From Coriobacteriia bacterium (GTDB lineage Bacteria; Actinomycetota; Coriobacteriia; Anaerosomatales; PALSA-660), in NCBI GenBank assembly GCA_025361505.1, contig JANYKZ010000027.1:1-37681 (forward strand): DNA of 37,681 nt, in the 5' to 3' direction. Below, in pieces: positions 24,746-28,971 of this stretch (position 1 is its first letter; every line of letters starts with the position of its first letter). The translations under genes and the position numbers were made by a program. The notes below the pieces were generated by a model. The model saw nothing but the letters and a program-made list of their open reading frames with translations, ran no database searches and was not told the DNA's origin.

Positions 24746-25429
24746 CTAGCGGGCCTCGGCGTGGACGCCGAACGTCTTGCGCAGGCTCGTCTCCTCGCCG
24801 CAATCGGAGAGGATGAGCACCTCGTCGCCGATGGAGAGCACCGTGTCGCCGTGCGGCACCGTGACCTCCCCCTTCGAGATGATCGCCATGATGTGCGCGC
24901 ACTTCGGGAGGTTGAGCTCGGCGATCGACTTGCCCACGGCGGTCGCGCTCGCCGTGAGCGTCAACGCGTCGATGACCATGTTCTCGGCCGACAGCCCCAT
25001 CAGCGTGATGACGTCGCCCAGGCTGACTTCCTTCTCGATCAGGCTGTAGATGACCGACGCGGTGGAGACGCCGACGTCGACGCCCCAGTGCTTGGTGAAC
25101 ATCCACTCGTTCTTCGGATGGTTGGTGCGCGCGAAGACCATCGGGACCTTGTGGGTCGTCTTGGCGAGGAACGACACGACGAGGTTGTCCTCGTCGTCAC
25201 CGGTCAGCGCCGCGATGAGGTCGGCGTGCCCGACGTTGGCGCGGTCGAGGACGGACGGCTCGCACCCGTCTCCCCGGACGACCTTGACGTTCGGCATCCG
25301 CTTCGCGACGTAGTCCGCGCGCTCCGGCCGGGACTCGATCACGGTGACGACGTGGTTCGCGCGCAGCTTCTCTACGAGGAAGAGCCCGGTCTTGCCGGCT
25401 CCGACGATCACGACATTCATCGTCGCCAC
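24746..25429 (-). CDS. TrkA-type potassium uptake regulatory protein (second copy)
   Basis: A 227-residue cytoplasmic protein with an RCK/TrkA-N Rossmann domain (VVIVGAGKTGLFLVEKL, acidic end of strand two in TVIESRPERAD, then VVRGDGCEPSVLDRANV) and a TrkA-C domain from about 140 (ASATAVGKSIAELNLPK to GDEVLILSD). Such subunits bind NAD(H) or nucleotide and gate TrkH/KtrB channels. The GTG at 25429 abuts the stop of the first TrkA gene, with AAGGAG just before it; the ATG at 25420 is an alternative. Second of two consecutive TrkA genes following the P-type ATPase. No TrkH/KtrB channel gene is in the window. Confidence 0.9.
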   Translation of the reverse strand: MATMNVVIVGAGKTGLFLVEKLRANHVVTVIESRPERADYVAKRMPNVKVVRGDGCEPSVLDRANVGHADLIAALTGDDEDNLVVSFLAKTTHKVPMVFARTNHPKNEWMFTKHWGVDVGVSTASVIYSLIEKEVSLGDVITLMGLSAENMVIDALTLTASATAVGKSIAELNLPKCAHIMAIISKGEVTVPHGDTVLSIGDEVLILSDCGEETSLRKTFGVHAEAR

Positions 25430-26115: not shown

Positions 26116-28971
26116 TCAGGTCAGGTCCGGCGCCAGCGAGGGCGCCGCGCCGATCGTGCTGTCAGGAGTGCTCGTCAACCTTCGCAGGAAGTACTTGCGG
26201 ATCTCGTCCGCGATCAGAAGGGTCGGCGCGAAGAGCGCCATGACCCCCCACTCGTGCCACGTGAGCGGTGCCGTGCTGAATACCTTCTGCAGAGCCGGAA
26301 CGTACATGAGGGCCGCAAGGCCCAGCAGCTCCGCGCCGATGCCCCACATGCGGAGCCGGTTGGAGAAGAAACCGACCGACAGGATGGACTGGCGGTGCGT
26401 GCGCATCGCGAAGCCGTTGCCCACCTGCGCCATGACGATACCAGTAAGGGTCATCGTCGTGGCGGCCATGTACACGCCGGTCGCACCGGAGACGCCGGCC
26501 ACGGGCATGGCGCCGAAGGAGGCCATCGTGGCCCACGACCCGAAGTGCCAGCCCGCCTCCATGTAGCGGTAGGCGAAACCGAACAGACCGATCAGGGCGC
26601 ACAGGGGTCCGAGGAACGCGTACGCCTTGATGATCATCCCGAAGGTCAGGATCGGTTCGCCCGGGCGCTTCGGCGGGCGCTCCATGACGCCGGGCTCGGG
26701 CCGCTCGAGGCCGAGGGCGAGCGCGGGCACCTGGTCGGTCAGCAGGTCGATGGTGAGGATCTGCAGCAGCGTCAGCGGCAGCGGCACCTTGAAGAAGATC
26801 ATCGCCAGGAACGGGAACATCTCGGCGACGTTGGAGATCTGGAAGTAGGTGAGGAAGCGCCGGATGTTGTCGAAGATCGCACGGCCTTCCTCGACGGCGG
26901 CGACGATCGAGGCGAAGTTGTCGTCGGTGAGGATCATGTCGGCGGCCTCGCGCGCCACGTCGGTACCGGCCTTGCCCATCGCGATGCCGATGTCCGCGGC
27001 CTTGAGCGCGGGCGCGTCGTTGACGCCGTCGCCGGTCATGGCGACGACCTCCTTCATGGCCTGCAGCGTCTGGGCGATGCGCATCTTGTGCTCGGGGACG
27101 ACGCGGGCGAAGACGACCTCGCCGGTCAGCGCCTGCATGAGCGCCGCCTCGTCCATCTCGTCGAGCATGAGGCCCGTCACGACGCGCGCGTCCTTGGTCG
27201 TGATCAGGCCGATCTTGCGCGCGATCGCCTCGGCGGTCAGCCCGTAGTCCCCCGTGATCATGATGATGCGGATCCCCGCGGTGTGGCACTCGGCGACGGC
27301 GGCCGTGACCTCGGCGCGCGGAGGGTCCTGCATGGCCTCGAGGCCGAGCAGAGTCAGGTCCTTCTCCATCGACGCGACGTCCTGGGCGTCGTCGCCAGCG
27401 AGCACGGGCCGCTGGGCGACGGCGATCACGCGCAGCGCCTCGCTGGCCAGCCGGTCGTTGGCGGCGAGCGCCTCGGCCCTGTCGGCCTCGGTGATCGGGC
27501 GGATGCCGTGGGAGTCCCTGATGTGGGTGCAGAGGTCGATGGTCTCCTTGGGCGCGCCCTTCACGTACGCCACAAGTCGGTCGCCGACCTCACACACGAC
27601 CGTCATGCGCTTGCGTGAAGAGTCGAACGGGAACTCGTAGCGGCGCGGACGCTCGGCGTCCAGGGCCTCCATGTCGAAGCCCGCCTTCGCGGCGGAGACG
27701 AGCATCGCGGCCTCGGTGGGGTCGCCCAGGATGGTCCAGACGTCCGTGCCCTCGGCGGGCGCACGCAGTCGCGCGTTGTTGCACAGGACGGCGGCGGCGA
27801 GGCAGTCCCCGAGGCGCGTCTTCTCGCTTCCGGTGACGGGCGCGCCGGCGGCGGCGAACGAGCCGACGGGCGCGTAGCCGACGCCCTCGACCTCGACCGA
27901 AAGGCCGGGCAGCCACACCTCGCGCACGGTCATCTGGTTCGCTGTCAGCGTGCCGGTCTTGTCGGTGCAGATGACGGTCGTGGAGCCGAGCGTCTCGACG
28001 CTCGAGAGCTTCTTGACGAGCACGTGACGCTTGGCCATGCGCTGGGCCGCCACCGAGAGCGCCATGGTCAGCGTGGGCAGCAGGCCTTCGGGGACGTTCG
28101 CGACGATGATGCCGATGGCGAACACGACCGCGGCGAGCGTCTGCATGCCGACGAAGATCTTGCCGATGGCGAAGAAGAAGAGCCCGAGCAGGACCGCGAT
28201 GAGCGAGATGAGCTGCGAGAGCTTGGCGACGTTCTTCTGCAGCGGCGAGAGCCGGTCACCGACGCTCTGCGTGAGGCCCGCGATCTTGCCGAACTCGGTC
28301 CGCATGCCGGTGGCGAAGACCACGGCGCGGCCCGATCCGAGGACGGCCGTGCTGCCGGTGAAGATGAAGCTCTCGACGTCGGTCACCGACGCGGGATCGA
28401 CGCACACGACGTCGGCCCGCCGCACGACCGGGTCAACCTCACCCGTGAGCGCCGAGTTGTCGACACGCAGGTCGGCGGAGTACACGAGCCGCGCGTCCGC
28501 GGAGATGAGGTCGCCCTCTTCGACGACCATGATGTCGCCGGGCACGAGCATCTTCGCCTCGAGCTCGGCCATCTGACCGTCTCTGATGACTCTCGCCTTG
28601 GGCGGGAGCATGTTGCGCAGCGCCTCGATCGCCTTCTCGGCCCGGTACTCCTGCACGAAGGCGAAGATCGCGTTGAGCAGGATGACGGCGATGATCGCGT
28701 ACCCGAGGGCGGCCTGGTCGGACAGGAACGACAGCACCGTCGCCACCCACAGCAGGATGGCGAACATGTTGACCAGATGCGCGCCGAACCTCTGCCACAT
28801 CGGCTTGGGCTTCTTCGCCGTCAGCACGTTGTAGCCGTACACCTCGAGGCGCCGCGTGGCCTCCTCCTCGGAGAGCCCCTTGCGGGACGTCTCGACGAGC
28901 GGGTAGACCTGGTCGGGCTTGGCGCCGCACAGTGCGGCGGTGTCGATCTTCAGTGCGTCAGGTGCGTCCAA
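26116..28971 (-). CDS. P2-type cation-transporting ATPase, Na+/K+-ATPase (P2C)-like
   Basis: A 951-residue integral membrane pump. In order: cation ATPase N-terminal domain (GLSEEEATRRLEVYGYN), actuator loop with LTGE, TM4 motif VANVPEGLLPT (near 292), phosphorylation motif CTDKTGTLT with Asp near 337, KGAPKE nucleotide loop, hinge MTGDGVNDAPALKAADIG, TM6 IDLLTDQVPALALGLE and a C-terminal four-helix block. VPEGLL, SVETLGST and DLLTDQVPA match Na+/K+-ATPases better than SERCA-type Ca2+ pumps. No ATG precedes the N-terminal domain; the TTG at 28971 follows GAGGA and is the best start, with an unsupported TTG at 29091. It heads an apparent operon with two TrkA genes. Ion specificity is inferred. 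Confidence 0.88.
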   Translation of the reverse strand: MDAPDALKIDTAALCGAKPDQVYPLVETSRKGLSEEEATRRLEVYGYNVLTAKKPKPMWQRFGAHLVNMFAILLWVATVLSFLSDQAALGYAIIAVILLNAIFAFVQEYRAEKAIEALRNMLPPKARVIRDGQMAELEAKMLVPGDIMVVEEGDLISADARLVYSADLRVDNSALTGEVDPVVRRADVVCVDPASVTDVESFIFTGSTAVLGSGRAVVFATGMRTEFGKIAGLTQSVGDRLSPLQKNVAKLSQLISLIAVLLGLFFFAIGKIFVGMQTLAAVVFAIGIIVANVPEGLLPTLTMALSVAAQRMAKRHVLVKKLSSVETLGSTTVICTDKTGTLTANQMTVREVWLPGLSVEVEGVGYAPVGSFAAAGAPVTGSEKTRLGDCLAAAVLCNNARLRAPAEGTDVWTILGDPTEAAMLVSAAKAGFDMEALDAERPRRYEFPFDSSRKRMTVVCEVGDRLVAYVKGAPKETIDLCTHIRDSHGIRPITEADRAEALAANDRLASEALRVIAVAQRPVLAGDDAQDVASMEKDLTLLGLEAMQDPPRAEVTAAVAECHTAGIRIIMITGDYGLTAEAIARKIGLITTKDARVVTGLMLDEMDEAALMQALTGEVVFARVVPEHKMRIAQTLQAMKEVVAMTGDGVNDAPALKAADIGIAMGKAGTDVAREAADMILTDDNFASIVAAVEEGRAIFDNIRRFLTYFQISNVAEMFPFLAMIFFKVPLPLTLLQILTIDLLTDQVPALALGLERPEPGVMERPPKRPGEPILTFGMIIKAYAFLGPLCALIGLFGFAYRYMEAGWHFGSWATMASFGAMPVAGVSGATGVYMAATTMTLTGIVMAQVGNGFAMRTHRQSILSVGFFSNRLRMWGIGAELLGLAALMYVPALQKVFSTAPLTWHEWGVMALFAPTLLIADEIRKYFLRRLTSTPDSTIGAAPSLAPDLT

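What the first reader, a model, noticed from the sequence alone, without database searches (positions are those of the whole stretch)
24746..28971. Na+/K+-ATPase-like P2 pump in an operon with two TrkA proteins
The pump has VPEGLL, SVETLGST and DLLTDQVPA, features closer to animal Na+/K+-ATPases than to Ca2+ pumps, and is followed after 17 nt by two adjacent RCK/TrkA genes with no channel gene. RCK subunits normally gate Trk/Ktr channels, so they may regulate a distant channel or even sense ions together with the pump. Linking a P2C-like pump with TrkA supports K+ or Na+ transport.
Basis: partly seen in the sequence, partly recalled or inferred. Interest (0 to 1): 0.55.

Follow-up and report, generated by a model that had tools for sequence, protein, structure and literature searches.

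The report
Sodium-potassium-type pump with RCK regulators
A bacterial ATP-driven ion pump, related to the animal sodium-potassium pump, sits in one operon with two proteins that normally open and close potassium channels, and the same three-gene unit occurs in four bacterial phyla, so these proteins probably control the pump itself, which would be a new kind of pump regulation.

Summary
A P2-type ATPase (26116-28971, minus strand) is followed by two RCK/TrkA genes (25430-26098 and 24746-25429), with gaps of 17 and 0 nt. In the window's relatives the pump-RCK1-RCK2 order held in 13 of 13 loci whose contig reaches past the pump. In a separate scan it held in 52 of 80 named loci (two of these cut off in or before RCK2), in four phyla. 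Pump stop and RCK1 start overlap by 4 nt in 34 of 65 loci.

The pump has the D804 that separates Na,K-ATPase from Ca2+ pumps (92 of 92 family members; 0 of 17 paralogues) and nine other Na/K ligand positions. Grouping Na,K-ATPase with SERCA and LMCA1 is rejected (AU p = 3e-7).

Pump-linked RCKs form their own lineages, apart from TrkH-linked RCKs. TrkH/KtrB is absent from the window's genome and from 28 of 50 RCK-linked genomes; 14 of those 28 also lack a KimA-like permease.

Best reading: a K+-importing, Na+-exporting P2C-like pump gated by a dedicated nucleotide-sensing RCK pair. Ion specificity and physical contact are inferred. A trans role on a KimA-like permease is the main rival. The paper searches made found no report of this pairing.

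The parts
26116..28971 (-). P2C-like P-type ATPase, 951 aa, TTG start at 28971
   Evidence: ORF and start; Pfam; Na,K-ATPase ion-site residues; phylogeny
25430..26098 (-). RCK1: TrkA_N + TrkA_C protein, 222 aa, 17 nt after the pump; GYGRVG dinucleotide motif
24746..25429 (-). RCK2: TrkA_N + TrkA_C protein, 227 aa, 0 nt after RCK1; GAGKTG dinucleotide motif

Best explanation
The three genes are one functional unit: a P2C-like (Na,K-ATPase-related) ATP-driven pump that most likely exports Na+ and imports K+, and two RCK proteins that assemble into a mixed ring and set the pump's activity according to nucleotide (ATP/ADP or NAD) and possibly ion status. Shown by sequence: the operon, its conservation in four phyla, the P2C-type ion-binding side chains, intact dinucleotide-binding motifs, and separate RCK lineages. 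Inferred: the transported ions and direction, the ring, and direct contact between RCK ring and pump.
For: Operon kept in 13 of 13 testable loci of relatives, own window included, and in 52 of 80 named loci: Bacillota 17, Chloroflexota 16, Actinomycetota 12, Thermodesulfobacteriota 6, unassigned 1. 0 of 22 loci (19 distinct places) of the P2A-type paralogues carry RCK genes. 34 of 65 loci overlap pump stop and RCK1 start by 4 nt. Residue D at NKA 804 in 92 of 92 family pumps, N in 17 of 17 paralogues; Q923 in 92 of 92; E954 in 83 of 92. NKA with SERCA1a and LMCA1 rejected, p 2.9e-7. Pump-linked RCK1 and RCK2 group apart from TrkH-linked ones (98* and 97*). TrkH/KtrB absent in own genome, in 7 of 14 pump-RCK relatives against 4 of 47 others (Fisher p 0.0016), and in 28 of 50 named RCK-linked genomes. 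14 of those 28 also lack a KimA-like permease. K+ context: full-length KdpD plus response regulator directly upstream of the operon in L062, and KdpD in L119; KdpD-like DUF4118 kinases in L066, L105, L111, L127 and L035.
Against: No biochemistry. For the window's own pump the PMR1 Ca2+ model scores above the Na,K model (624 to 580 bits; neither reaches its cut-off). NKA D926 is N in the window, and T774 is I. 25 of 80 named loci with room downstream have no RCK, so the pump can work without it. 7 of 14 pump-RCK relatives do have TrkH. The window's genome holds a KimA-like fragment at a contig edge, and KimA-linked RCKs are the nearest relatives of the window's RCK2 outside pump operons.
Confidence: 0.6

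Rival explanations
1. The RCK pair regulates another K+ transporter in trans (a KimA-like permease, or Trk where present) and is only co-transcribed with the pump for joint K+/Na+ control.
For: KimA-like permease in 22 of 61 relatives, including a fragment in the own genome; G002, G006 and G010 hold KimA but their only RCK pair is the one beside the pump. KimA-linked RCKs nest inside the pump-linked RCK lineage. An APC permease lies just upstream of the pump in several Chloroflexota loci.
Against: 14 of 28 TrkH-less RCK-linked genomes have no KimA-like match, including the cultured Schleiferilactobacillus perolens and S. harbinensis and Citrifermentans bremense. Linkage to the pump, with a 4-nt overlap in 34 of 65 loci, is kept across phyla while linkage to the permease is not.
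Confidence: 0.22
2. The pump is a Ca2+ (P2A-type) ATPase and the RCK genes report a Ca2+ link.
For: Overall identity to LMCA1 (37.5%) equals that to NKA (36.9%); the PMR1 model scores highest for the window's pump.
Against: D not N at NKA 804, and S775, Q923 and E954 as in NKA; the genome's P2A-type paralogue (C46) has the SERCA-like N804 and S954. P2A references form one clade without the pumps (100*). M5-M6 identity is 48% to NKA and 32% to SERCA1a and to LMCA1.
Confidence: 0.1
3. A P2C-like Na+ pump with no K+ counter-transport (for example Na+/H+), the RCK pair sensing nucleotide or Na+ only.
For: D926 replaced by N in 71 of 92 and T774 variable. A membrane pyrophosphatase, called sodium-translocating by NCBIfam in L061, lies within 2 kb downstream of RCK2 in L041, L061 and L072.
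Against: KdpDE-type K+ sensors and APC-type permeases lie beside several of the operons; the E327, S775, N776, E779, D804, D808 set is intact in the window's pump.
Confidence: 0.2

Closest known systems
Na,K-ATPase alpha subunit (P2C) and the uncharacterised prokaryotic P2C-like pumps (PMC10654040 section 7; passages of PMC9609216)
   Same: Same side as Na,K-ATPase against P2A; E327, Y771, S775, N776, E779, D804, T807, D808, Q923 and E954 kept; no SYG(Q/E) alpha/beta assembly motif, as reported for prokaryotic members in PMC9609216
   Different: No beta-subunit assembly motif, unlike the animal enzyme; D926 to N; two RCK genes in the operon; does not reach NCBIfam TIGR01106's cut-off
TM1088A/TM1088B two-subunit TrkA ring of Thermotoga maritima (PMC4380455, passages read)
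   Same: Two adjacent RCK genes forming one cytosolic regulator; in Thermotoga one subunit is TrkA_N only, as is RCK2 in 12 of 63 loci here, with L094 left out because its contig ends
   Different: TM1088's partner is the TrkH protein TM1089; here the partner gene is a P-type ATPase and TrkH is absent
Listeria LMCA1 (lmo0841), bacterial P2A Ca2+ pump
   Same: Best single PDB sequence match of the window's pump (528 bits)
   Different: N at 804, A at 779 and C at 954
KdpFABC
   Same: Bacterial P-type ATPase for K+ uptake, controlled by KdpDE (recalled)
   Different: P1A, with KdpA channel subunit; the window's genome has a separate kdpA

Membership tests
P2C (Na,K-ATPase) subfamily | D (not N) at NKA 804 in M6 with E327, S775, N776, E779, D808 | tested here: met
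P2C (Na,K-ATPase) subfamily | site III residues Y771, Q923, E954, D926 | tested here: inconclusive
   Y, Q and E met, D926 is N
P2C (Na,K-ATPase) subfamily | phylogenetic placement with NKA rather than P2A | tested here: met
   P2A one clade 100*; NKA with SERCA1a and LMCA1 rejected p 2.9e-7; NKA inside or sister to the pumps undecided, p 0.415
P2C (Na,K-ATPase) subfamily | NCBIfam TIGR01106 cut-off 946.1 bits | tested here: not met
   580.4 bits, below PMR1's 624.4. Hence 'P2C-like', not filed as a member
P2C (Na,K-ATPase) subfamily | 3 Na+ out / 2 K+ in, ouabain or vanadate sensitivity | not testable with these tools
   needs biochemistry
P2A Ca2+-ATPase | N at the M6 first carboxylate position (SERCA N796) | tested here: not met
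   D in 92 of 92 family pumps, N in 17 of 17 paralogues
RCK/TrkA regulator | TrkA_N and TrkA_C domains over Pfam cut-offs | tested here: met
   both proteins
RCK/TrkA regulator | GxGxxG dinucleotide motif | tested here: met
   64 of 65 RCK1 and 63 of 63 RCK2
Trk/Ktr K+ uptake system | TrkH/KtrB channel subunit in operon or genome | tested here: not met
   no PF02386 match in the own genome; genome 90% complete
c-di-AMP-binding RCK_C proteins | dinucleotide signature quoted in PMC10117811 | tested here: not met
   0 of 128 pump-linked RCKs

The most novel reading that the evidence does not exclude
Prokaryotic Na,K-ATPase-type pumps are gated by a dedicated hetero-RCK ring: a primary pump uses the regulator otherwise known from K+ channels and secondary transporters, and in many bacteria this unit takes the place of Trk/Ktr for K+ uptake.
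Probability: 0.45. Interest if true: 0.85.

Novelty: new variant of a known kind. Interest (0 to 1): 0.68.

Why it matters
A 2023 review lists 'P2C ATPases: what do they do in archaea?' as an open problem and says the archaeal products are uncharacterised (PMC10654040, section 7 read). A conserved partner gene in bacteria gives a direct handle: it points to K+/Na+ homeostasis under nucleotide control and offers cultured hosts for tests (for example Acetobacterium dehalogenans DSM 11527, Schleiferilactobacillus harbinensis DSM 16991, Thermoanaerobacterium butyriciformans DSM 101588). If the RCK pair binds the pump, RCK rings would regulate a primary ATPase, which no paper seen here describes.

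Tried and rejected
Riboswitch control: Rfam at gathering cut-off on 28 sources (window and 27 loci) found no ydaO, Na+ or Mg2+ riboswitch; only tRNAs, glycine riboswitches and one c-di-GMP-II aptamer. c-di-AMP signature in RCK_C: 0 of 128 pump-linked RCKs. Pump-RCK gene fusion: none among the RCK-bearing ORFs listed. Conserved upstream gene: the 198-aa ORF at 29146-29739 has no Pfam match and no match in the other loci, so it is not part of the unit. Foldseek of the first AlphaFold model (mean pLDDT 68) ranks Na,K/H,K structures 1-12 by E-value, but SERCA E1 has a slightly higher TM-score (0.79), so the fold does not decide the subfamily. A second model on a 57-row alignment (A2) had not finished when I stopped. 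A regular expression for the acidic residue after the dinucleotide motif was badly chosen and is not used. None of the listings showed a paper on an RCK/TrkA-linked P2 ATPase; most of those papers were not opened. Passages or sections were read in PMC10654040, PMC9609216, PMC4380455 and PMC10117811.

Dropped rows: L036 (partial pump) is in the RCK counts but not in the residue or tree sets. L139 was left out of the RCK tree (its two RCKs are in one cut frame). The 47-row tree uses a chosen subset of 37 of the 92 family pumps.

Full report
On the minus strand the window has a P2-type ATPase (26116-28971, TTG start), RCK1 (25430-26098) and RCK2 (24746-25429), with gaps of 17 and 0 nt. Pfam places all four cation-ATPase domains in the pump and TrkA_N plus TrkA_C in each RCK protein, over cut-off. 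By NCBIfam, RCK1 mostly matches the first half of TrkA models and RCK2 the second half. The same split appears against TrkA chain 4j9u: RCK1 in its N-terminal half, RCK2 in its C-terminal half.

The unit is conserved. In 61 genomes around the window, 14 (own included) have a pump of this group at 904 bits or more; the next matches are paralogues at 593 bits or less. Wider stretches show RCK1 and RCK2 directly downstream in all 12 relatives whose contig goes on past the pump; in the 13th the contig ends inside the pump. With the window this is 13 of 13. 52 of 80 have RCK genes within 1.5 kb downstream on the same strand: 50 as pairs, L099 and L128 cut at the contig edge; 3 have too little DNA and 25 have none. 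The 52 lie in Bacillota (17), Chloroflexota (16), Actinomycetota (12), Thermodesulfobacteriota (6) and one unassigned. The 25 are mostly Nitrospirota (8) and Cyanobacteriota (6), with two archaea. As a control, 22 loci (19 distinct places) of the P2A-type paralogues have no RCK gene, though 16 of these have only up to 1.5 kb of flank. In 34 of 65 loci the pump stop and the RCK1 start overlap by 4 nt, which points to coupled translation (inference).

The pump is P2C-like. An alignment of 117 P2 pumps with human Na,K-ATPase alpha3, SERCA1a and LMCA1 shows E327, Y771, S775, N776, E779, D804, T807, D808, Q923 and E954 of Na,K-ATPase in the window's pump; D926 is N and T774 is I. Over 92 family pumps D804 is 92 of 92, Q923 92 of 92, E779 91 of 92 and E954 83 of 92, while 17 of 17 paralogues have N at 804. 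(The residue numbers are Na,K-ATPase numbers recalled from the literature; the columns come from the alignment.) In a mixture-model tree of 47 rows the P2A references form one clade (100*) and Na,K-ATPase falls with an archaeal (L095) and a Desulfofervidaceae (L104) pump (95*, 98*). Forcing Na,K-ATPase with SERCA1a and LMCA1 is rejected (p 2.9e-7). Forcing it just outside the pump family is not (p 0.415), so nested or sister is undecided. Results the other way: overall identity of the window's pump is 36.9% to Na,K-ATPase and 37.5% to LMCA1; its best PDB sequence matches are LMCA1 chains; and it scores 624 bits with the PMR1 model against 580 with the Na,K model, neither over cut-off. The relative L038 and the archaeal L095 score higher with the Na,K model (658 to 615 and 740 to 658), and the paralogue L032 the reverse (466 to 733).

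Who do the RCK genes serve? TrkH/KtrB has no match in the own genome. Among 61 relatives it is missing in 7 of 14 pump-RCK genomes and 4 of 47 others (Fisher p 0.0016, not corrected for kinship or completeness). Among 50 named RCK-linked genomes it is missing in 28, including the complete Kutzneria chromosome; of these 28, 14 also lack a KimA-like permease at E 1e-20 (Kutzneria has one). In the tree of 149 RCK domains all 65 pump-linked RCK1 fall in one group (98*) and all 63 pump-linked RCK2 in another (97*), apart from the TrkH-linked RCKs sampled from the same order. The KimA-linked pairs of two relatives (L137, L140) nest inside, next to the window's own. A dedicated RCK pair thus travels with the pump. 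The KimA nesting, the KimA fragment in the own genome, and relatives G002, G006 and G010, which hold KimA but no RCK pair other than the pump's, keep a shared or trans role open for the window's own family. The name KimA-like rests on the permease's look and its recalled family; NCBIfam gave it no match.

The surroundings point to K+. L062 has full-length KdpD and a response regulator directly upstream of pump-RCK1-RCK2 on the same strand. L119 has KdpD and response regulators beside it. L066, L105, L111, L127 and the relative L035 have KdpD-like kinases with the DUF4118 domain within the fetched flanks. An APC-type permease precedes the pump in Chloroflexota loci. A membrane pyrophosphatase follows the operon in L041, L061 and L072. 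These are neighbourhoods, not proof.

Mechanism proposed. RCK1 and RCK2 keep the GxGxxG motif (64 of 65 and 63 of 63). In 12 of 63 loci RCK2 is only the nucleotide-binding domain (a 13th, L094, is cut by its contig end), as TM1088A is in the TM1088A/TM1088B ring, whose partner is TrkH protein TM1089 (PMC4380455, passages read). I infer a mixed RCK ring that binds the cytosolic face of the pump and adjusts Na+ export and K+ import to nucleotide or ion status. Contact, stoichiometry and direction are not shown. Confidence 0.6 for the unit as described.

Known or new. Prokaryotic P2C-like pumps and two-gene RCK rings are both known; their pairing was not in the listings of ten paper searches of an open-access library (call numbers under Tried and rejected). 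I therefore call it a new variant of a known kind. The claim that RCK rings are otherwise known only from channels and secondary transporters rests on recall.

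Noticed in passing
G000:C73:11731-13394: kdpA of the window's genome is split over two overlapping frames, by a real frameshift or an assembly error; of the other 12 of 61 genomes with kdpA only G039 is also in two pieces, on two contigs.
   Followed up: no
L041, L061, L072 downstream of RCK2: A membrane pyrophosphatase (NCBIfam: sodium-translocating for the L061 copy) follows the pump-RCK operon in three distant loci; V-ATPase-like genes follow it in L054.
   Followed up: partly
L109, L111, L105, L119, L127, L133, L057, L059: A conserved protein of about 365 aa upstream of the pump in Chloroflexota; the L119 copy has no Pfam or NCBIfam match.
   Followed up: partly
L072:3133-5955 and 5974-8754; L057 and L059: Two P2C-like pumps in tandem upstream of one RCK pair; the L072 first copy reads H-L and E where the family has S-N and D.
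   Followed up: no
L054:6178-8325, L055:614-5693: Further RCK genes, including a fused tandem TrkA, near the pump operon; in L055 a TrkH gene lies at 1967-3466.
   Followed up: partly
G000:C46:6155-8806 and other relatives: The P2A-type paralogue of several genomes shows one in-frame stop within the matched stretch.
   Followed up: no
L114:5061-5966: A protein that looks like a universal stress protein (from its sequence start, not tested) precedes the RCK-less Nitrospira pump.
   Followed up: no
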